Shown here in pieces: positions 16,427 through 53,284 of a stretch of 60,000 bases of DNA. The stretch comes from Bolinopsis microptera. Its lineage: Eukaryota; Ctenophora; Tentaculata; Lobata; Bolinopsidae. A program made the translations under genes and the position numbers. The stretch is from positions 14,037,167 through 14,097,166 of the forward strand of contig NC_087074.1 of the NCBI RefSeq assembly GCF_026151205.1, given 5' to 3'. The notes beneath the pieces are model-generated. The model saw only the letters and a list, made by a program, of their open reading frames with translations. It searched no databases and was not told the DNA's origin. The first letter of the stretch is position 1. Every line of letters starts with the position of its first letter.

Positions 16427-17814
16427 CAAGAAGAGTGCCTCGGCCCTCGATATGTAAGTTACTGTCCTTGTTTCTATATAAACATAACTTTTACAATAAT
16501 TCTTGCGTAATAATTATAATGATTATGTTTCTATATAAACATAACTTTTACAATAATTCTTGCGTAATAATTATAATAATTTTCTATTATCACTAGAAAC
16601 CGCACAGACCTTCTATCTACACACAAACCAACTAGCAATTGTCATTTCTCTAATCCTATGAACCAGTGTATCCCTAATTCATAATTCGTGTAACAACGAG
16701 TAAGTTACAGCTTGAATCAATATAGCTTCCAGTATGCTGTTTGATAGCAATAATATATTCGAGATAATGTTATACTAGTGTAAGCAAGGCCTACGTCCGG
16801 GACTTCACTATCGGAGTTGAAATGCAAAAGTTTAAACCCGCCTATTGTATTCTAAAAACCCATTACATTTATTTTGGTAGTTAAAACGGTGCAAAAGTAT
16901 GAAATCACTCAGTCAAAGCATACTTCAATTCAATTCTGAGTGCTCCTCACGTATCTACTAGTAATACTTGATACAGCATATCTGTCGAGTATGGGAGAGA
17001 GACAGTAGGAGAGATAAGAGGGAGAGACATTTGGGTCACAAAATCATCAATTAAACCACTTATCACCGGCCGATTAAAAAACTTAGGCTCTTGTGCTTCG
17101 TCAGAGTTTTGTGGGCACAATACCGAAATAAACAGCCACGTACCTTTTACCGTTTTCTAACTCAACAATGTACGTGTCGATCGTGGGCATCATGAAGAAG
17201 AGTCTGTTTAGATCTTAACACTATTCCTTGGCTAACACACTAAAGATTATTAATATAGATGCTATTATTTTGCCTGACGATCCTGTCGCTCCCTAATCTT
17301 AAACTATACTAACAATCTAGTTAATCGTTTTTGAAACTGTGTTTGAAAATGATCTCTATTGCCAAATTGCTTTTAGGCCTTCTGTGTGGGAAAATCATCA
17401 AGAATTTTTGGCTGCGGAAAACCGCAAACATATCTTCAATTCCTGTCTGTGCGAAAGTGTGCACAAAGTTGAAAGTATGCACTCTACATTTCTCAGGATA
17501 TGGTTGCCTCTACTCTGCAAGGCACATATAATAATTTGTGATAACTAAGACAGATGGTGCAAGCTGGCCATGCTTTACTTGTGGGTCATTTTGTAACTGG
17601 GTTGTAGTATAGGAGAAAGCCATTTTGTAACATACTATTTTGAAGGTTTTAGTGTGGCCATTAAACATTTTCTGGGGCCTAGCTCCAAATGCTTAAGAAC
17701 TGTCCTGTTTCACTCGCCGACATTGCGAAAGTGGAAAATTCGCGAGCGAAGCAACAAAAAAGCAGAAAATTTGTATCTGCGAGGAAATTTTTAACTTTCT
17801 GGATGTGGGGCAAT

Positions 17815-18242
17815 CGCTACTCGCGACTGCGTAAAAATAGGTGTTTGCCTAATAACTCAACAACCTGACGTCCGAGGATTTTGAAATTGTGCTCGACCCT
17901 AGTTAATATGATGATTCCGAACATTTTAGTGCCCAGGATGAGCACCTAGCTCAATCAGTAGCCGAGATATCTCGTATTTAGTGTGCAAATAACAACTCGC
18001 GAGAGCAAAAAAAGGGTGTGGTCACATAACTCAACAACCTGATTCTAATTAGAAGCGGATTTATTTTTATTTGAAAGTCGCGAAAGCGCCAAAAAAGGGC
18101 GTGGTCAATTGCGCAAAACTGCCCCATATTCAGAAAGTCTACCCAAGCCAAATTTGTTTCTGAGGGGTCCCTTGAGCCGTTCCAGGTCTCAAACCTCGGA
18201 GCGGAAGACTTTTATACGGGAATATTCTCAGATCCATGACTA
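17815..18242 (+). mobile_element. Solo arm of the foldback family that hit the ABC gene (copy A)
   Basis: The sequence ending GGAATATTCTCAGATCCATGACTA matches the right arm of the element at 47288-49350, including 'ggcgtggtcaatt', 'gcaaaactgcccca' and 'taataactcaacaacctgac'. No matching left arm is present, so it is a half element. The same half is at 33175-33672, with about 70 bp that copy A has lost. Confidence 0.7.
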
Positions 18243-18682
18243 TAATTCATAATTCGTGTAACATTATCATGAAGAAGAGTCTGTTTAGATCCCTTTTGTC
18301 AAGTAAAAAGTATATTTACACCAGCGTACTAAACTACGAAATAAAGAGTTAACACGAAGGCGTAAAAAAGTGCAGTATTAGGTAAATAGTGAGATTCCGC
18401 ACCCACCGCTTTTATATGTTGCCTCTGATGAACTTCCGTGATAAATTGCTTTTAATCTTCCATGTGGTCATTACTTTTTTATCCCTACAACTATTTTGAG
18501 TTGCATGATGCTGTTTACCTTAGGTGTTATGGACGTTAAAACGTTTTATTCCAAAATCAACAGTCCATAACAACTTAGCTGTTAAATATTCCGTAATATT
18601 TCTCCTTTCCCCGATTTCTTTTTTTCTCCCTTTGTGATGGTTTTAGTTCACTATTTGATGTACTACTTACTTCAGTTACCAA

Positions 18683-20215
18683 ATGGGATTAGGAAAACTC
18701 ATGATGAGTTACATAAAGAAAATTTTTGCGTCACCATCTAAATCATCTAAACTTAGTGAACAAGAGGCGAAAATAAAGAGGAGTGATGGACATGAAATGA
18801 ACCTTGATGAGCTTTTTCAAGGATCAGGATTAGGCAAAACTCAATTCTTTCTGTGGGGGCTTCAGTTTCTCATCGCCTTGGTGCATCTGTCTATATACTT
18901 CATGACAACTATTCTCATTCCCTATCTACGCTGTGAGTGGGGTTTTAACACCTGGGTTGAAGTGGCTGTTGGATCAGCTTTACCTATGTCAGTTGCAGTG
19001 AGTGGAGTTGTAGCTGGTAATCTTGCTGATAAAGTTGGAAGGAGAATGGTCTTATTGGTAACAACCGTGTTCTTGGCAATTGGCTCCATCATGATTGTTG
19101 TTTCACCAAACGTTTGGGTCCTGCTGGTTGCTCTTATAATACAAGGGATTTGTACTGGTATTGCCTATCCTGTTTGCTTTGTCTATTCTGTAGAAATCAC
19201 TGCTTCCAACAACAAAGAGCTAGCTGTCATGATCGTGTATCTCGGGCAGTTCGGAGGGGTATTCTTGTCCACAGTCTCCTACTTTGCTATCAACAATATA
19301 GGATGGCGGTATGTGGTGGCAGTGATTTCATGTCCGTTTATTGTCATTCTCATAGGCCTGATCATGTGTCCAGAAACCCCACGTTACTTGCTAGTTCATG
19401 GGAAAGGTGAAGAGGCAATACAGTCGTTAAAGAAAATCTATGAGTGGAATGGAGACGTTTTTCCAAAAAACTGTGTATCTATTAAAAAGTCTGATATTGT
19501 CGAAAAAGCTGGAAAGTTGCTGGACATATTTAGTTTCGAATACAGAAAGCCCACCATACTTCTGACAACAACATTGTTCGCAAACTTTTACATATCCTTA
19601 GCATTTGCGGCATACCTTCCTCTCGCTTCAGAGAATACAAAAGAAAGTCAGAACATTTACTCTGCAAATGATACTTCATGCCAAAATATCCTTGACAAGA
19701 AAGCTCTGGCAGGAAATATTGTAGCTTTTTTTGGGGACGTCCTTGGGGTTCTCTTATCAGGATTTCTTGCAAAGAGGGTGGGTCGGAAATTCATCGTCAT
19801 CGGCTTCTCTTTACTAGCTCTGTTATGCACCATAGCAGGCTTTTTCGATTTAAATCAAACCGTGAAGATGATCTTGAACATGCTACTTCGCTTGGTTGGA
19901 ACTGGGTTACGGTATAGAATATATCTTATGACCCTGGAATGTTATCCTACCGTCCTCAGAAGCACAGCTTCAACCTTCATACACTCTCTTGGGGACGCTG
20001 GTGGCACAGTTGGCAGTTTCCTCACGTACTTATTGTATCCAGTAAGTCCGGAATCTGTGGTGAGCTTGTTTGTTGGGGCGGCAGCGGTACAACTGATGGC
20101 ATCGGTATTTTTGAACACTGAAAACAAAGATTTAGCTGATCACACGAAAAGGGCAGATTCAACAGGACATGATTCTCAAAAAGACGAAAATTATGTGCTT
20201 AACCGAGACTTCTAA
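18683..20215 (+). CDS. SVOP/SLC22-like MFS transporter, copy 1 (intact, intronless)
   Basis: A single 510-residue ORF. A charged cytoplasmic N-terminus (residues 1-50) leads to DELFQGSGLGKTQFFLWG, the SV2/SVOP-type entry to TM1. About 12 hydrophobic segments follow. Family landmarks are loop 2-3 GNLADKVGRRMVLL, post-TM6 PETPRYLLVHGKGEEAI, loop 8-9 GFLAKRVGRKFIVIG and ECYPTVLRSTASTF before TM11. SVOP/SLC22-type carriers move organic ions or metabolites across membranes; the substrate here is unknown. The extracellular loop between TM1 and TM2, long in true SLC22 members, is short, which favours SVOP-like. No introns, unlike the genes around it. The gene sits in the large SPEF2 intron, same strand, with the same upstream 200-300 bp as the other copies. 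Confidence 0.88.
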   Translation: MGLGKLMMSYIKKIFASPSKSSKLSEQEAKIKRSDGHEMNLDELFQGSGLGKTQFFLWGLQFLIALVHLSIYFMTTILIPYLRCEWGFNTWVEVAVGSALPMSVAVSGVVAGNLADKVGRRMVLLVTTVFLAIGSIMIVVSPNVWVLLVALIIQGICTGIAYPVCFVYSVEITASNNKELAVMIVYLGQFGGVFLSTVSYFAINNIGWRYVVAVISCPFIVILIGLIMCPETPRYLLVHGKGEEAIQSLKKIYEWNGDVFPKNCVSIKKSDIVEKAGKLLDIFSFEYRKPTILLTTTLFANFYISLAFAAYLPLASENTKESQNIYSANDTSCQNILDKKALAGNIVAFFGDVLGVLLSGFLAKRVGRKFIVIGFSLLALLCTIAGFFDLNQTVKMILNMLLRLVGTGLRYRIYLMTLECYPTVLRSTASTFIHSLGDAGGTVGSFLTYLLYPVSPESVVSLFVGAAAVQLMASVFLNTENKDLADHTKRADSTGHDSQKDENYVLNRDF

Positions 20216-32384: not shown

Positions 32385-33174
32385 TTTGGGTCACAAAATC
32401 ATCAATTAAACCACTTATCACCGGCCGATTAAAAAAACTTAGGCTCTTGTGCTTCGTCAGAGTTTTGTGGGCACAATACCGAAAAAAAACAGCCACGTAC
32501 CTCTTACCGTTTTCTAACTCAACAATGTGTCGATCGTAGGCATCATGAAGAAGAGTCTGTTTAGATCTTAACACTATTCCTTGGCTAACACACTAAAGAT
32601 TATTAATATACATATGTAGATGCTATTATTTTGCCTGACGATCCTGTCGCTCCCTAATCTTAAACTATACTAACAATCTAGTTAATCGTTTTTGAAACTG
32701 TGTTTGAAAATGATCTCTATTGCCAAATTGCTTTTAGGCCTTCTGTGTGGGAAAATCAAGAATTTTTGGCTGCGGAAAACCGCAAACATATCTTCAATTC
32801 ATGTCTGTGCGAAAGTTTAAGTTGTATGCACTCTACATTTCTCAGGATATGGTTGCCTCTACTCTGCAAGGCACATATAATAATTTGTGATAACTAAGAC
32901 AGATGGTGCAAGCTGGCCATGTTTTACTCGTGGGTCATTTTGTAACTGGGTTGTAGTATAGGAGAAAGCCATTTTGTAACATACTATTTTGAAGGTTTTA
33001 ATGTGGCCATTAAACATTTTCTGGGGCCTAGCTCCAAATGCTTAAGAACTGTCCTGTTTCACTCGCCGACATTGTGAAAGTGGAAAATTCGCGAGCGAAG
33101 CAAGCGGGCCACAAAAAGCAGAAAATTTGTATCTGCGAGGAAATTTTTAACTTTTTGGATGTGGGGCAATCGCT

Positions 33175-33672
33175 ACTCGCGACTGCGTAAAAATAGGTGT
33201 TTGCCTAATAACTCAACAACCTGACGTCCGAGGATTTTGAAATTGTGCTCGACCCCAGTTAATATGATGATTCCGAACATTTTAGTGCCCAGGATGAGCA
33301 CCTAGCTCAATCAGAAGCCGAGATATCTCGTATTTAGTGTGCAAATAACAACTCGCGAGAGCAAAAAAAAGGTGTGGTCACATAACTCAACAACCTGATG
33401 TCTGGTGAATTATGCTCTACCCCCCTGAATATGATGATTCTGAACAACTTTAAAGCCAAGTTTAGCTCCTAATTTCAATTAGAAGCGGATTTATTTTGAT
33501 TTTAAAGTCGCGAAAGCGCCAAAAAAGGGCGTGGTCAATTGCGCAAAACTGCCCCATATTCAGAAAGTCTACCCAAGCCAAATTTGTTTCTGAGGGGTCC
33601 CTTGAGCCGTTCCAGGTCTCAAACCTCGGGGCGGAAGACTTTTCTACGGGAATATTCTCAGATCCATGACTA
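33175..33672 (+). mobile_element. Solo arm of the foldback family (copy B)
   Basis: Paralogue of 17815-18242, slightly longer. Ends GATCCATGACTA, as does the right end of the complete element in the ABC gene. Confidence 0.7.
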
Positions 33673-34339
33673 TAATTCATAATTCGTGTAACAACATCAT
33701 GAAGAAGAGTCTGTTTAGATCCCTTTTGTCAAGTAAAAAGTATATTTACACCAGCGTACTAAACTACGAAGTAAAGAGTTTACACGAAGGCGTAAAAAAG
33801 TGCAGTATTAGGTAAATAGTGAGATTCCGCACCCACCGCTTTTATATGTTGCCTCTGATGAACTTCCATGATTAATTGCTTTTAATCTTCCATGTGGTAA
33901 TTACCTTTTTATCCCTTCGCCGATTTCTTTGTTTATCATTTTTTCCTTTTGTTAGTTTTAGAACTTCCCGGTAGTAGCGTACTTTAATTAAAATGGTTCA
34001 CGAGCAGCTACTCTGTTATTATCTAAATATCTACCTGGTTAAGCAATAATTACATAAATTAGTGAAAGCTGTGGCACGTGTACTTAGTTTAGTGTTCCTG
34101 CATAGCCACGATCTTCATGCATGATTTAATTATGATGAGTTCACTTCTTTTACAACTATTTTGAGTTGCATGATGCTGTTTACCTTAGGTGTTATGGATG
34201 CTAAAAACGTTTTTATTCCAAAATCAACAGTCCATAACAACTTAGCTGTTTAATATTTCTCCTTTCCCCGATTTCTTTTTGTCTCCCTTTTTGTTGGTTT
34301 TAGTTCACTATTTGATGCATTACTTACTTCAGTTACCAA

Positions 34340-35875
34340 ATGGGATTAGGAAAACTCATGATGAGTTACATAAAGAAAATTTTTGCGTCACCATCTAAAT
34401 CATCTAAACTTAGTGAACAAGAGGCGAAAATAAAGAGGAGTGATGGACATGAAATGAACCTTGATGAGCTTTTTCAAGGATCAGGATTAGGCAAAACTCA
34501 ATTCTTTCTGTGGGGGCTTCAGTTTCTCATCGCCTTGGTGCATCTGTCTATATACTTCATGACAACTATTCTCATTCCCTATCTACGCTGTGAGTGGGGT
34601 TTTAACACCTGGGTTGAAGTGGCTGTTGGATCAGCTTTACCTATGTCAGTTGCAGTGAGTGGAGTTGTAGCTGGTAATCTTGCTGATAAAGTTGGAAGGA
34701 GAATGGTCTTATTGGTAACAACCGTGTTCTTGGCAATTGGCTCCATCATGATTGTTGTTTCACCAAACGTTTGGGTCCTGCTGGTTGCTCTTATAATACA
34801 AGGGATTTGTACTGGTATTGCCTATCCTGTTTGCTTTGTCTAAGCTGTAGAAATCACTGCTTCCAATAACAAAGAGCTAGCCGTCATGATCGTGCATCTC
34901 GGCGGGCAGTTCGGAGGGGTATTCTTGTCCACAGTCTCCTACTTTGCTATCAACAATATAGGATGGCGGTATGTGGTGGCAGTGATTTCATGTCCGTTTA
35001 TTGTCATTCTCATAGGCCTGATCATGTGTCCAGAAACCCCACGTTACTTGCTAGTTCATGGGAAAGGTGAAGAAGCGATACAGTCGTTAAAGAAAATCTA
35101 TGAGTGGAATAGAGACGTTTTTCCAAAAAACTGTGTATCTATTAAAAAGTCTGATATTGTCGAAAAAGCTGGAAAGTTGCTGGACATATTTAGTTTCGAA
35201 TACAGAAAGCCCACCATACTTCTGACAACCACATTGTCCGCAAACTATTACATATTCTTAGCATTTGCGGCATACCTTCCCCTCGCTTCAGAGAATACAA
35301 AAGAAAGTCAGAACATTTACTTTGCAAATGATACTTTATGCCAAAATATCCTTGACAAGAAAGCTCTGGCAGGAAATATTGTAGCTTTTTTTGGGGACGT
35401 CCTTGGGGTTCTCTTATCAGGATTTCTTGCAAAGAGGGTGGGTCGGAAATTCATCGTCATCGGCTTCTCTTTACTAGCTCTGTTATGCACCATAGCAGGC
35501 TTTTTCGATTTAAATCAAACCGTGAAGATGATCTTGAACATGCTACTTCGCTTGGTTGGAACTGGGTTACGGTATAGAATATATCTTATTACCGTGGAAT
35601 GTTATCCCACCGTCCTCAGAAGCACAGCTTCAACCTTCATACACTCTCTTGGGGACGCTGGTGGCACAGTTGGCAGTTTCCTCACGTACTTATTGTATCC
35701 AGTAAGTCCGGTATCTGTGGTGAGCTTGTTTGTTGGGGCGGCAGCGGTACAACTGATGGCATCGGTATTTTTGAACACTGAAAACAAAGATTTAGCTGAT
35801 CACACAAAAAGGGCAGATTCAACAGGACATGATTCTCAAAAAGACGAAAATTATGTGCTTAACCGAGACTTTTAA
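34340..35875 (+). pseudogene. SVOP/SLC22-like MFS transporter, copy 2 (one nonsense codon)
   Basis: About 98% identical to copy 1. The first 167 codons look identical by eye, then TATTCT becomes TAAGCT at 34841, giving a TAA stop in TM4-TM5. After it the frame stays open to the normal C-terminus (ENYVLNRDF), with an in-frame 3-bp insertion (HLGGQFGG against YLGQFGG) and about a dozen replacements (for example WNG to WNR and TLECYP to TVECYP). There are no frameshifts, so the lesion is recent or the codon is read through. A downstream ATG at 34886 would give 329 residues lacking the first four or five TM segments, unlikely to work as a transporter. Confidence 0.85.
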
Positions 35876-46670: not shown

Positions 46671-47287
46671 AGTAGAAATTAGACTCCCTGAGTGTCTTAT
46701 TCATCAGAATAATTCTTTTAAAAACAAAATCACGGAGAATGGTCAGTAACAAATAAAATATCATAAGTTTAAACATTATGGAACAATCTGAAACCGTCTT
46801 AATAATCATTATTCCTCGGATGGACCAAAGTTATTTTCATCTAATTCACAGTCTACAAATAAAGGCCCGTCCTCTTCAATTAGTGGACATTCCTTGTTGA
46901 CAACATCATTCAATTTCTTGTCCTTAGAGTGGCTAACTTGTCTAACGAATTCCTGAGAAGCTTGTTTCATGAGCTGTTTAGCATCCTCTCCTGACACGAC
47001 ACTCTCCTTCATCTTCTTACAAGTATCCTCGACCAGCTGTTTGGATACCAGGTTAGCATAGTACTTGCCTAGCTCCATCAGCTGTTCATGAGTCCCTCTC
47101 TCCTTAACCTCCCCGTCCTTCAGACAGATAATCTCATCTGCCTGTCTTATAGTGCTGAGTCTGTGAGCTATAACTATAGTTGTCTTGCCCTTCATTAGTT
47201 TGTCCAGTGCCTCCCGAACTTCCTTCTCGTTTTGAGCGTCCAAAGCGGAGGTCGCTTCGTCTAATATCAGGATATCAGGATCTCTCA

Positions 47288-49350
47288 TAGTCAAGGATCT
47301 GACGACATTCCCGTCTATATAACTTCCGCCCCGGGGTTTGAGACTTGGAATACCTCAAGGGACCCATTAGAAACAAATTTGGCTTGGGTAGAAATTTTGG
47401 CTATGGGGCAGTTTTGCGCAATTGACCACGCCTTTTTTTGGCGCTTTTTCAACTTTAGAATCAAAATAACTCCGCTTCTAATTGGAATTAGAAGCTCAGC
47501 TTGGCTTCACAGTTGTTCAGAATCATCACATTTAGGGGGGTTGAGCATAATTTTAAAGTCAACAGACATCGGGTTGTTGAGTTATGTGACCACACCCTTA
47601 TTTACCCTCGCGAGTCGTGATTTTCACACTAAATACGAGATATCTCGGCTTCTGATTGAGCTACGTGCTCATCCTGGGCATTAAAATGTTCAGAATCATC
47701 ACATTGAGTAGGGTAGACCACAATTTCAAAGTCCTCAGATGTCAGGTTGTTGAGTTATTAGGCCCCAACCTGTTTTTACGCTCTCGCGGGTAGCGATTGC
47801 AGCGCTTAAAATCAAAATAACTCAGCTTCCAATTGAAGTTAGGAGCAAAACTCGGGCAGCAAAATGTTCACAATCATCACATTGAGTGGGGTAGAACGTA
47901 GTTTCAAAGTCCTCAGACGTCAGGTTGTTGAATTATTAGGCCCACACCATCATATTTACGCTCTCGCGAGTCGCGAGTCGACACTTACAATCAAAATATT
48001 TCGGCTTCTGATTAGAGTTAGGAACTAAACTTGGGCATAAAAATGTTCAGAATCATCACATTGAGTGGGATAGAACGTAGTTTCAAAGTCCTCAGACGTC
48101 AGGTTGTTGAGTTATTAGGCGGAACCCTATTTTTACGCTCTCGCAAGTAGTGATTCTATGCTTAAAATCAAAATAACTCTGCTCCTGATTAGAGTTAGGA
48201 ATTAAACTTTGGCATAGAAATGTCCAGAATTGTGAACATTTTTATACCCAAGTTTAGTTCCTAACTCTAATCAGAAGCCGAGTTATTTTGATTTTAAGTG
48301 TCGACTCGCGACTTGCGAGAGAGTAAATATTATGGTGTGGGCCTAATAACTCAACAACCTGACGTCTGAGGACTTTGAAACCACGTTCTACCCCACTCAA
48401 TATGATAAATCTGAACATTTCCATGCCCAAGTTTTGTTCCTAACTCTAATCAGGAACCGAGTTATCTTGATTTTAAGTGTCGACTCGCGACTCGCGAGAG
48501 CGTAAAAATAGGGTTCCGCCTAATAACTCAACAACCTGATGTCTGAGGACTTTGAAACTACGTTCTATCCCACTCAATGTGATGATTCTGAACATTTTTA
48601 TGCCCAAGTTTAGTTCCTAACTCTAATCAGAAACCGAGTTATTTTGATTTTAAGTGTCGACTCGCGACTCGCGAGAGCGTAAATATGATGGTGTGGGCCT
48701 AATAACTCAACAACCTGACGTCTGAGGACTTTGAAACTACGTTTTACCCCACTCAATGTGATGATTGTGAACATTTTGCTGCCCGAGTTTTGCTCCTAAC
48801 TTCAATTGGAAGCTTTGTTATTTTGATTTTAAGCGCTGCAATTGCTACCCGCGAGAGCGTAAAAACAGGTTGGGGCCTAATAACTCAACAACCTGACATC
48901 TGAGGACTTTGAAATTGTGGTCTACCCTACTCAATGTGATGATTCCGAACATTTTAATGCCCAGGATGAGCACGTAGCTCAATCAGAAGCCGATATATCT
49001 CGTATTTAGTGTGAAAATCACGACTCGCGAGGGTAAATAAGGGTGTGGTCACATAACTCAACAACCCGATGTCTGTTGACTTTAAAATTATGCTCTACCC
49101 CCCTAAATGTGATGATTCTGAACAACTTTAAAGCCAAGCTGAGCTTCTAATTTCAATTAGAAGCAGAGTTATTTTGATTCTAAAGTTCCAAAAGCGCCAA
49201 AAAAGGGCGTGGTCAATTTCGCAAAACTGCCCCATAGCCAAAATTTCTACCCAAGCCAAATCTGTTTCTAATGGGTCCCTTGAGGTATTCCAAGTCTCAA
49301 ACCCCGGGGCGGAAGTTATATAGACGGGAATGTCGTCAGATCCATGACTA
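47288..49350. mobile_element. 2.06-kb palindromic foldback element inside the ABC exon
   Basis: Ends are TAGTCAAGGATCTGACGACA and its near-perfect complement TGTCGTCAGATCCATGACTA, flanked by TCA (47285-47287, 49351-49353). Almost the whole element is two inverted arms meeting near 48,235. Each arm holds about four tandem units of about 183 bp (landmarks 'agaatcatcacattgagtgg', 'caggttgttgagttattagg' and 'ctctcgcgagtcg'). No transposase ORF. A solo arm of the same family lies upstream of both SVOP-like genes. Confidence 0.88.
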
Positions 49351-51471
49351 TCATGGCTGCTCTGGCTATAGCTACTCTCTGCTTTTGTCCTCCCGAGATT
49401 TGTAAACCTTGTGAACCTGCAAACGTGTCCATTCCGCTCCGGAACTTGTTGATAAAGTCACAATTAGCCAACTCAGCTGCTTTTTTAACCCTTGTCATGG
49501 TGATCTGCTCTGGAGTTGCTGCCCCGTAAGAAATATTCTCCACTAGAGTAGTATTGAGGAGGCTGGGATCCTGGCTGACAATGGCCATCTTTCCGTGGAG
49601 CTCTTTCAAATCAAAGTCCCTGATGTCCTTGCCACCGATGGTAACTCTGCCTTGCTGGGGGTCGTATAGTCTCATGAGTAGCTTGGCTATTGTTGTCTTT
49701 CCACTGCCAGAGTCTCCTACCAGAGCGGTCATCTTCTTGCGCTGTATTTTCAGGTCCAATCCCGAGAAGACAGTCTCCCCTATCCTGGTGGGATATCCAA
49801 AGTGAACATCCTCTAAATGTATGTCTTCCTCTAGAGAACCGACTATATCGCTACCAGAAACCACCTCACAGGGTGTGGCAATAAACTCTACATAGTTATC
49901 TACTGCAGACAAATCTTCTTCGAGGAGTTCTATGTGAAAATTCATCCACATAAATTGATTTTGGAAGCTGTCATAAACAATGTAAAACATCATGAGATCA
50001 CCAGGTCCGAAAATGGATTCTGAGGAGGATAATTCGTAAGCTATCATGAAGGCTAGCAGAAAATATTTAAAGGTATGCTCTGCAAATTCATTCTGAATTC
50101 TATTTAGCACAAGGGACCTCTCACAAGACAACCAGCTTTTTTCTGCTACTTTTTGTTCATTAACGTGAAGTTCCTCTTGAGAAAACTGCTTAACGGTAGA
50201 TACCATTTTTATAGCCTCGCTTTTCAAGTTCTCTGCTCCGGAAAGTAACTTGCTTTTGCATCGCTCCAACGTCATGGCTTGCCTTCTTGCCGGAAAGAGG
50301 TACAGAACATTGAAAAGGGCTGTGAATACAATCACTATTCCCCCAATCGTGGCATTCGCTCTCACTAAATAGAACGCAGATGTAAAAATACCAAGAACAT
50401 GAGCCAGTAAGTAGGGAAAGTTCCAGGTCACTAATCTGCACATGCTTTCAACATTGCTCATACTATTGACTTCAGACTGAGTATGAGAGTCATGGTATCC
50501 CTGGTGCAAGGACAGTGCCTTCTCCAGAGAGGTTGTATTCAAAGTACCCATTATCTCGACATGCCCCTGGACGTGCACTAACACATTTCCGAGGTAGACT
50601 AGTCGCTCCAATATTACCATCAGCACGAACCCTACTAGGATGGCCCTAATATGCTCAAACCTGCTCTCGCACTTCAACATTGTGTAACAGAGGGCATTGC
50701 CGTAGAAGCTTTGGTTGTAATCTGCAGTGTCGTCAGAGATTATGGTGATAAGGTGACCGGTTAGGTTTAATATCTCTAAGTCCATGACTTTGTGGCATAT
50801 GAGCAGAGCAATAACAACAAACATTCTTATTGTGTACTGTCTGGTGAGAAGAGCTTTGGAGATCGCAGAGAGAAGAGCAGATATGGATAACTTAGCGGTG
50901 TGTTCCTTCTTATCAAGATAAACACCCCTCTTCTCAGCTTCAATAATCAGATCTGTTGTGAATTCTTTAGAACCTGTCTTGTCCAGTATCTTGTTCTTCT
51001 TCGTATCAAGAAACAAGGCTCCCCGCCCAGCTTTCTTACCACACTTCTCACTCACCTCCCCCCACCAACACTCTGCTTCTCTCTTATCAGAGAACTCCTT
51101 TACCTCAACCCCGTCTTCCTTCTCCTTTGTTCCCTGATAAAGCACACTGAACCACTCTTTGTTAACAACACTCTCCTCTCCGCAGGGCTGCTGCTTGTAC
51201 CCCACCAGTGCTCCAGACTTTATCTGTATGGAAAGTATTTCCATCCCCGGATCAGCTGTTATAATGGTACGCTTGTGTTTCGGTGTTCTTGAACATACGG
51301 GCTCGAAAGTAAAGATTCTGCCTCGATTTGTCTCCAGTTCTAGTGATGCTGCCGCCCATCTTCTGCTTATCAGGGTCTCGTGTGTAACTCGGACCTGATG
51401 GAGAAATCTTTGTTAAATAGCTGATCGACTTTTAATTTAAGCAATGAATTTATAGATTTTTTAAATGATTA

Positions 51472-51866
51472 GGGGTCGTTCACATATTACGTAATCAGCC
51501 GAGGGGGGAGGGGGGGGGGGTTTCCAAATGCTTACGGTTGATTACCCTCAAGAATAATAACAATTTGACAATATTTTAATTCAAATTCCACTCAATTTCA
51601 CTCTGATAGTGATAAAATTTAGAAATTGATCGAATATCCGCCTATAATAGTAAGTAGTTTAGAAGGTGCTTGGCCGGATATCATAACAATGATTTCGGCT
51701 CATCATGATAGCATGATCAGGGTAGCATGAAACGTAGAGAAAAGTGTTTTCTAGGAAAAAAGTCAAGGGGGGGGGGGGGGGGGGGGTCTTGATTACGGTT
51801 GATTACGGAAGGGGGGAGGGGGTAAAAATTGCTAAAATATTGATTACGTAATATGTGAACGACCCC
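51472..51866. mobile_element. Harbinger-like MITE in an ABC-gene intron
   Basis: Inverted ends GGGGTCGTTCACATATTACG and its complement CGTAATATGTGAACGACCCC, flanked by TTA on both sides (51469-51471, 51867-51869), as expected of PIF/Harbinger relatives. The interior has G runs, one about 20 long near 51,768-51,787. No ORF. Confidence 0.75.
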
Positions 51867-52435
51867 TTAAATGAGAAAACGAGAAAACAAGAGAACAAAA
51901 TATATATTTTTCTGAATTTCATGAACTTTTGATACTTATCATTCCAATTAAACTACACATACCAAGTATTCGTTATCTGAGAAGATGATTGTTTTTCCGT
52001 GTGATTTGCCTCCTCCTAGACCGTAAGACCAAATACTGTCATCATCATACGTTATAATGATACTGTCTATAACCTGTTTATCTGGACATACCAATTTTAT
52101 AATTCCTATGTAATATCACCATGGCAACAATTTAGGGGTTTAGGGCACAGTAATGGGATAGTAGGACGAACATTTTAAAATCCTAGTCTTTCCCTTATCC
52201 AGCATTGCAGCTATTTTTATAGAACAGCATTTGTCTTGGCAGCTTTTCTGCAAAGTGCGTAGCTAGTTGAGACATATTGATATTCAACACTGTATTGTTT
52301 TATTCTAATCTCTCAAATCTTAATCAATTAAATCAATTACAGGTGTTAATGGATATTAGAGAACAAACCTTGTATTTCTATCTTCTTGATCCGATACTCT
52401 GCTTTAGTTTTGGTGATTACTCTGTCAGGGTCCAT

Positions 52436-53284
52436 GGCAAGGACTGCTAAAAGTAACCGAGTGTTATAAAGATGAATAGCAGAACATTTAACATTGTGTC
52501 AGTGAAACATACTGTGACAGTGACTATAACCTTATAACGGGAATGGAAGTTCCGCCATTGAAAAAGTGAGGTAAAATGGTTGATTATTCGTACAACCAAA
52601 GTATAGTATTACTATTAACACAATTTCATTTAGGTAAAACTAAAAGTACTACATCAACAAGACAATACCATTACCGTCGTATAGTTTATTGGCACTATAA
52701 ATTCAGCTGGATTAATTATCCAAGATCGATTTAATTATATTATACATCATATCATATTGTCATTTTTAGATACGTTAGGCAATTTTTCGGTATAAACTTC
52801 TTCCATTTGACTGAAATATCCTCATGCTACTCTAAAATGCAAAAAAAATCTTTGATAAAGAGGTATAATTATGAGCTGGTCGCATCGATGTGATTTCGCT
52901 AAGCGAAATACCGACCAAGTACGTGCACTCAAGCAGATCATTTAGGAATGAGGATCTCATCGCGTGACACTTCAGCACCTACTAAGGGTATCTCATGTTC
53001 AGTCTGGTGTCCAGATGAGATCCCATCGCATAGCGGTTCTTAGTTAGTGATTTCGATAGTGCAGTATAAATGTCACGGAGAATTTAGTTTTGGTATATCA
53101 CATTTAGGAACCGACCGGATATCCGGCTGAATCCGGATCCGGCTTCAATATCCGGTTCCGGCTCCAGTTTCAAAATGTTGCCGGATGTTTCTTTTAAAAA
53201 ATTAATTTCTAAAATCTTGAAATGCATTTTTTTGTCACATTTTAACTCGATTCCTTTAAAATATTAAAAATTGTTTAATTAAGT
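52436..53284. other. Upstream of the ABC gene; no supported exon or promoter
   Basis: AT-rich sequence. A short palindromic patch at about 53,105-53,165 (ccggatatccgg, ccggatccgg, tatccggttcc) may be the end of an unrecognised element. The frame upstream of the first ABC ATG stays open for about 20 codons with hydrophobic content (LLLAVLA) but has no ATG. Confidence 0.4.

What the first reader, a model, noticed from the sequence alone, without database searches (positions are those of the whole stretch)
46809..52435. Apparent fusion of a jacalin-type lectin with an ABC exporter
Two small exons plus the start of the large exon encode a jacalin-like beta-prism sequence (IDSIIITYDDD, glycine-rich GLGGG, DNEYL, ELETNRGRIFTF) in frame with an ABCB-type half-transporter. 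Exon phases agree (1 then 0). I know of no described transporter with this layout; a lectin head on an exporter could tether it to glycans or sense sugar ligands. The lectin call rests on motif pattern by eye.
Basis: partly seen in the sequence, partly recalled or inferred. Interest (0 to 1): 0.8.

Follow-up and report, generated by a model that had tools for sequence, protein, structure and literature searches.

The report
Jacalin-headed ABC exporters, comb jelly family
A genome that is very probably a comb jelly's carries four genes in which a jacalin-type domain is fused to the front of an ATP-driven membrane pump; the fusion is real and maintained by selection, although the copy in this window is interrupted by a jumping element while two other copies are whole.

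Summary
The fusion is real. On the minus strand, two small exons (52435-52369, 52081-51963) and the start of a large exon (from 51394) encode a jacalin domain (Pfam PF01419, 33.9 bits for the 139-aa head, cut-off 22, E 4.9e-8), in frame with an ABCB-type half-exporter. Genome searches found these jacalin exons at four places, each joined to the same ABC gene with the same exons and phases. Among copies T, B and D the jacalin domain is 76-82% identical (dN/dS 0.12-0.15), the membrane domain 48-62%.

- The large exon here is interrupted inside the ATPase domain by a 2,062-bp long-inverted-repeat mobile element. A tandem copy about 1 kb beyond the window is whole, 901 aa.
- No signal-like segment precedes the exporter core, so the head probably faces the cytosol, not outside glycans.
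- The first jacalin strand is missing and the recalled sugar-binding Asp is not evident: lectin activity is unproven.

The assembly matches Bolinopsis microptera (inference). Seven literature searches with jacalin as a term listed no such protein.

The parts
52369..52435 (-). Exon 1: start codon and first jacalin strands (MDPDRVITKTKAEYRIKKIEIQ), ends phase 1
   Evidence: same exon in all four paralogues
51963..52081 (-). Exon 2: jacalin core (KQVIDSIIITYDDDSIWSYGLGGG...NEYL), 119 nt, ends phase 0
   Evidence: acceptor confirmed by three paralogues
51197..51394 (-). Second half of the jacalin domain, first 66 codons of exon 3 (VRVTHETL...SGALVGY)
   Evidence: Pfam match extends into exon 3 in W and T (to residue 92) and to residue 123 in B and D; pN/pS 0.17-0.24 among T, B and D
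50876..51196 (-). Linker of about 107 residues between jacalin and membrane domain; no Pfam match above cut-off (linkers of T and B scanned)
49901..50875 (-). Membrane domain (exporter core; boundaries are my cuts)
   Evidence: MsbA and TAP2 models align through it in T and B; hydropathy of T and B shows five clear helices; ABC_membrane below cut-off
49351..49900 (-). First part of the nucleotide-binding domain: Walker A, Q-loop, signature ISGGQ (motifs by eye), up to ...AIARAAM
47289..49350 (.). 2,062-bp mobile element with 945-nt inverted arms inserted in the coding exon; ATGA at both edges
   Evidence: site is empty in the tandem paralogue
46809..47288 (-). Rest of the nucleotide-binding domain (Walker B, D-loop, H-loop, by eye), C-terminal tail ending [10 protein letters not shown], stop
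51471..51867 (.). 0.4-kb insertion with 27-bp inverted ends inside intron 2, absent from the tandem copy

Best explanation
This is a small paralogue family of ABCB-type half-exporters with an N-terminal jacalin-fold head. Shown here: the layout (jacalin, linker, membrane domain, ATPase, tail ending DENNFGPS) in four genes of one genome, two of them whole; purifying selection on the head; the mobile-element interruption of the window copy. Inferred: the protein works as a dimer, presenting two jacalin heads on the cytosolic side next to the ATPase domains. The head acts as a cytosolic targeting or sensing module that binds a protein, lipid or glycan ligand and places or gates the pump. The window copy probably makes no working pump in this haplotype, while its tandem twin (start codons 11.8 kb apart) could.
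For: Pfam Jacalin above its cut-off in W 33.9 (head), T 29.4 (whole protein), B 32.4 and D 26.7 bits (first 200 and 202 aa). Jacalin exons found at 4 places in the genome, all 4 adjoining the ABC gene. Among T, B and D, exons 1+2 and the jacalin part of exon 3 separately give pN/pS 0.17-0.27, bootstrap upper limits 0.30-0.43, while their introns do not align to one another. T and B are open for 901 and 903 aa, with the ATPase motifs by eye. No signal-like segment in T and B, no conserved upstream exon found. In T the TAP2 model aligns from its residue 158 to its end (711) and MsbA from 52 to 569 of 572. Around two more distant ABC genes of the genome, 5.7-6.2 kb upstream of the matching part held no hit to exon 1 or 2 better than E 1.5.
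Against: No structure could be predicted (tool switched off). No expression data here. ABC_membrane stays below its cut-off (18.4 and 16.4 against 28). Hydropathy gives five clear helices plus one weak peak before the first in T; the expected sixth helix did not pass the threshold, so the side on which the head lies is not settled. Two of four copies carry insertions in coding sequence and D also a stop in its tail. Solved-structure searches with the head were weak (best E 0.015, to a 'hypothetical protein'). The role of the head is inference only. All copies come from one genome.
Confidence: 0.58

Rival explanations
1. The head is a true cytosolic lectin: it binds glycans that appear in the cytosol, for example on ruptured endomembranes or bacteria, and couples that to pumping.
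For: Jacalin-family match in all four paralogues; strong conservation of the head among T, B and D; the glycine-rich loop is kept, GLGGG in W, T and B, GLGGR in D.
Against: The match begins at profile position 16-17 of 136, so the first strand is missing, and no conserved upstream exon was found to supply it. No Asp or Glu is conserved in the last strand (KSGALVGYK, KSGKLIGFE, RSGALVGYE), where jacalin lectins (recalled) carry GXXXD.
Confidence: 0.17
2. The head faces outside or a lumen and tethers the exporter to glycans.
For: Many lectins act outside cells (general knowledge). Only five clear helices were seen by hydropathy, which taken literally would put the head on the other side from the ATPase.
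Against: No signal peptide-like or early hydrophobic stretch in T and B; the TAP2 and MsbA models align through the core into the ATPase, including the stretch where the sixth helix belongs; no conserved upstream exon found.
Confidence: 0.09
3. Two separate genes, lectin and transporter, run together by the model.
For: The jacalin domain is split over three exons and its exon-3 part alone has no Pfam match.
Against: The second half of the jacalin domain sits in the same exon and frame as the transporter in W, T and B (in D, up to an insertion in the linker); all parts are under selection among T, B and D; not found apart.
Confidence: 0.03
4. The family is decaying: the head is a leftover with no function and copies are being lost to mobile elements.
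For: Insertions in the coding exons of 2 of 4 copies, plus a stop in the tail of D.
Against: The head is more conserved than the membrane domain, and pN/pS is about 0.2 between the older copies; two whole copies remain.
Confidence: 0.07
5. The 2-kb element in the window copy is spliced out as an intron and the window gene is functional.
For: Three of 21 GT-AG pairs within 45 nt of the edges keep the frame open.
Against: All three use the same poor donor (CCC|GTCTAT), 25 nt inside the element, so each changes the stretch between signature and Walker B; none gives the tandem copy's sequence.
Confidence: 0.1

Closest known systems
ABCB half-transporters and TAP/MsbA-type exporters (type IV ABC exporters)
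   Same: Membrane domain then ATPase domain; ATPase motifs present in the whole copies (by eye); models of MsbA (313.9 bits) and TAP2 (288.3 bits) align through the core of T; best solved relatives of T are ABCB4/ABCB1 (two stretches summed), then ABCB10, ABCB8 and MsbA, among the best 60 of 310 shown
   Different: N-terminal jacalin domain instead of nothing or TAP's extra helices (the latter recalled); scores far below the cut-offs of the MsbA (602) and TAP2 (874.6) models, so not an orthologue of either
Jacalin-like lectin domain, PF01419 (plant jacalin-related lectins, ZG16, bacterial jacalin-type lectins; examples recalled)
   Same: Pfam match over most of the profile in B (16-129 of 136), glycine-rich loop, EYL strand
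   Different: First strand missing, recalled GXXXD Asp not evident, no secretion signal, fused to a pump
Wzt-type bacterial O-antigen ABC transporters with a carbohydrate-binding domain (recalled, no call)
   Same: A carbohydrate-binding-type domain attached to an ABC transporter on the cytosolic side
   Different: Unrelated fold, C-terminal on a separate ATPase subunit, bacterial; analogy only
Other jacalin gene of this genome (L001, C13)
   Same: Jacalin domain, 28.1 bits in one open frame
   Different: BTB-like upstream part (by eye), no ABC transporter seen in the 3.2 kb fetched; not the source of this head by any test here

Membership tests
Jacalin-like lectin domain PF01419 | Profile match above curated cut-off (22 bits) | tested here: met
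   W 33.9 (head), T 29.4 (whole), B 32.4, D 26.7 bits; 4 of 4 paralogues
Jacalin-like lectin domain PF01419 | Complete domain including the first strand and GG loop at its start | tested here: not met
   Matches start at profile 16-17, near where the protein itself starts; no conserved upstream exon found, though exons under 18 codons or beyond 3 kb could be missed by the translated comparison
Jacalin-like lectin domain PF01419 | Sugar-binding GXXXD in the last strand (motif recalled) | tested here: inconclusive
   No conserved acidic residue in SG[AK]L[VI]G[YF]; exact register rests on Pfam end points only
Jacalin-like lectin domain PF01419 | Beta-prism fold | not testable with these tools
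   Structure prediction switched off
Jacalin-like lectin domain PF01419 | Glycan binding | not testable with these tools
   Needs protein
ABCB-type half-exporter | ATPase domain with Walker A, Q-loop, signature, Walker B, H-loop | tested here: met
   Motifs read by eye in T and B; ABC_tran 109.9 bits in T over profile 2-137 of 137
ABCB-type half-exporter | The same in the window copy as one exon | tested here: not met
   Split by a 2,062-bp element
ABCB-type half-exporter | Exporter membrane domain before one ATPase domain | tested here: met
   MsbA and TAP2 models align through both in T and B; against: ABC_membrane below cut-off, 16.4-18.4 of 28, and five rather than six clear helices by hydropathy
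TAP / MsbA subfamilies | Score above the curated subfamily cut-off | tested here: not met
   288-314 bits against 874.6 and 602

The most novel reading that the evidence does not exclude
An unrecognised class of animal ABC exporter, perhaps confined to ctenophores, in which a cytosol-facing jacalin head senses glycans (on ruptured vesicles or microbes) and switches on the pump, making it a glycan-gated transporter.
Probability: 0.12. Interest if true: 0.85.

Novelty: new variant of a known kind. Interest (0 to 1): 0.55.

Why it matters
Both halves are known families, but my searches listed no described ABC exporter with a jacalin head. If it is confirmed, it adds a domain to the repertoire of ABC exporters and gives a testable case of a possible cytosolic lectin fold controlling a pump in a lineage near the root of animals. 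Two whole copies, an interrupted tandem twin and strong conservation of the head make function testable.

Tried and rejected
Solved-structure searches with the head alone were weak. For W, 10 hits at E <= 10, best 0.015 and 0.02 to chains named 'hypothetical protein', then 0.055 and 0.098 to jacalin-type lectins. For the four-copy profile, 6 hits, best 0.081 to a jacalin-type lectin, one chance hit to a tetracycline destructase at 0.41. For copy B, 7 hits at E <= 1, six of them unrelated leukocidin chains at 0.3 to 0.47 and one jacalin-like lectin at 0.98. A bacterial and archaeal genome scan with two short patterns from the head profile gave 126 pattern matches and 0 confirmed relatives. The linkers of T and B and the tail of T have no Pfam match above cut-off; the weak UL45 hit to the tail (0.0066; 0.015) is below cut-off and rejected.

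Species: Nematostella was my first guess. Two 25-mers from PMC9098223 (passages read) are absent, and a recalled pan-cnidarian miR-2022 20-mer is absent. I dropped it. The assembly (264,652,675 bases; C1 26,206,493 bases; window GC 39.5%) fits the values given for Bolinopsis microptera in PMC11797021 (265 Mb, 13 chromosomes, largest 26.2 Mb, GC 38.5%; passages read). The scaffold number differs (232 here, 346 there). This remains an inference.

Literature: ten searches, seven of them with jacalin as a term: 7 of 7 papers listed; 2 of 2; 13 of 13; 4 of 4; 10 of 1,217; 10 of 741; 1 of 1. The other three served the species question or ABC genes of Nematostella. I saw listings only, plus passages of PMC9098223, PMC11797021 and PMC10232365, and a find with no hits in PMC10548089. 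No ctenophore or other animal genome was available for comparison.

Full report
Observation. The minus strand of the window carries exon 1 (52435-52369), exon 2 (52081-51963) and a large exon from 51394. Their joined product begins with a sequence that Pfam recognises as Jacalin at 33.9 bits, against a cut-off of 22 (139-aa head). My first join used an acceptor 8 nt inside exon 2 and gave 26.4 bits for the head and 22.2 for the 740-aa protein. The correct acceptor was chosen by phase and is shared by the three paralogues. The domain is split: exons 1 and 2 hold its first half, and the first 66 codons of the large exon hold its second half. The start of exon 3 alone gives no Pfam match (77 aa of W; 140 aa of B), so the call rests on the joined model.

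The window copy is interrupted. Between the ABC signature and Walker B the coding exon contains a 2,062-bp element with 945-nt arms that are 96% complementary. It has ATGA at both edges, and the site is empty in the tandem paralogue. A search with the terminal 152 bases gave 40 scored matches, all at 97% identity or more, out of 178 candidates of which 40 were scored, so it belongs to a recently active mobile family. Of 21 GT-AG pairs within 45 nt of its edges, 3 keep the frame open; all use one poor donor 25 nt inside the element and none gives the uninterrupted sequence. The window copy as assembled is therefore probably broken.

Paralogues. The own genome (G000) was searched with the large-exon protein. 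Eight matches appeared at E <= 1e-8. Five of them belong to four genes: the window copy W; T, in tandem on the same chromosome and strand, its near end about 1 kb beyond the window and its start codon 11.8 kb from that of W (95% identical over the large exon); B on C1 (69%); and D on C1 (63 and 77% in two pieces). Two further matches are more distant ABC genes (30 and 37%) and one is a 69-residue fragment with a stop (48%). Exons 1, 2 and 3 lie in the same order in all four. Exon lengths are 67 (61 in B) and 119 nt, phases 1 then 0, and all eight introns are GT-AG. T and B are open for 901 and 903 aa. D has a 2-kb insertion in the linker with a short repeat at both edges, and a stop in its tail. 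Searching the whole genome with the start of B's exon 3 (143 aa) and with T's exon 2 (39 aa) gave four matches each, at these same four genes and none elsewhere at E <= 1. Around the two more distant ABC genes, 5.7-6.2 kb of sequence upstream of the matching part held no hit to exon 1 or 2 better than E 1.5; their own 5' ends are not known.

Selection. Between T, B and D, where synonymous sites are heavily changed, the jacalin domain is 76-82% identical with dN/dS 0.12-0.15. The ATPase domain is 82-88% identical (0.06-0.08) and the membrane domain only 48-62% (0.11-0.26). Exons 1+2 alone give pN/pS 0.19-0.27, and the jacalin part of exon 3 alone 0.17-0.24, with bootstrap upper limits of 0.30-0.43. 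The three pairs share copies and are not independent. Some synonymous distances are near or past saturation: linker and tail could not be computed for T-B, nor the tail for B-D. T and W are too close to inform (dS 0.00-0.10). Introns of T, B and D show no alignment to one another at E <= 0.01; those of T and W do.

Topology and head. In T and B no strongly hydrophobic segment precedes about residue 228 (T) or 240 (B). Five clear helices follow, spaced as in an exporter core; T has one further weak peak at 228-246, and the sixth helix expected near residues 530-550 did not pass the threshold. Against a missing helix, the TAP2 and MsbA models align through the core into the ATPase. The N terminus therefore most likely lies in the cytosol, but this is inference. 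The Pfam match starts at profile position 16-17 and ends at 101 to 129 of 136. No conserved exon was found upstream of T, B and D: only short weak matches by DNA (4.5-4.9 kb) or in translated frames of 18 codons or more (last 3 kb). The last strand reads KSGALVGYK, KSGKLIGFE or RSGALVGYE, without a conserved Asp at the place where jacalin lectins, as I recall, carry GXXXD. I therefore call it a jacalin-fold head, not a proven lectin. The fold itself could not be predicted, and solved-structure searches with the head were weak.

Interpretation. The best reading is a dimeric ABCB-type exporter with two cytosolic jacalin heads that target or gate it. Architecture and selection are shown; dimerisation, ATPase activity, cytosolic placement and the role of the head are inferred from family knowledge. 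The substrate cannot be named.

Source. Assembly size and largest chromosome match Bolinopsis microptera as tabulated in PMC11797021; this is an inference. Pfam Jacalin was found in 0 of 14 control genomes and at one other gene of this genome. That search works exon by exon and did not see the split domain of the window gene, so such counts are lower bounds.

Novelty. Seven searches of open PubMed Central text had jacalin among their terms; no title or abstract start listed there names a jacalin-ABC exporter. Searches showed 10 of 1,217 and 10 of 741 papers. The only paper holding both jacalin and ctenophore was on choanoflagellate flagella (not read). Databases of eukaryotic proteins were not available, so similar architectures may be annotated elsewhere.

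Noticed in passing
window 47287-49351, 33166-33673, 17810-18243: Long-inverted-repeat mobile element family, recently active: 40 scored matches to its terminal 152 bases at 97% identity or more genome-wide, several in opposite pairs about 1.5-10 kb apart.
   Followed up: partly
window 18659-20212 and 34316-35872, plus strand: Two closely similar copies (by eye) of a major-facilitator-like transporter reading frame; the second is split by a stop at 34841-34843.
   Followed up: no
L001 (C13:2911245-2914409): Another jacalin gene, with a BTB-like upstream part by eye; the only match to Pfam Jacalin in the genome search.
   Followed up: partly
window 46812-52435 against L010: Divergence of W and T is patchy: dS 0.10 in the membrane domain, 0.00-0.02 elsewhere, as gene conversion could leave.
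   Followed up: no
window 46812-46841 and paralogues: The last residues DENNFGPS.E are kept in all four copies, even after the stop of D, although the tail is only 50% identical between T and B; perhaps a sorting or docking peptide.
   Followed up: no
L012 about 8000 to L013 2012: Copy D has a 2-kb insertion in its large exon with a short repeat (AGACAGGATCTGAG) at both edges, plus a stop in the tail.
   Followed up: partly
window 51471-51867: 0.4-kb insertion with 27-bp inverted ends in intron 2 of the window copy, absent from T.
   Followed up: no
window about 52436-52450 and paralogues: All four copies have an AG 8-12 bases before the start codon (by eye), so exon 1 may begin there after a 5' noncoding intron.
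   Followed up: no
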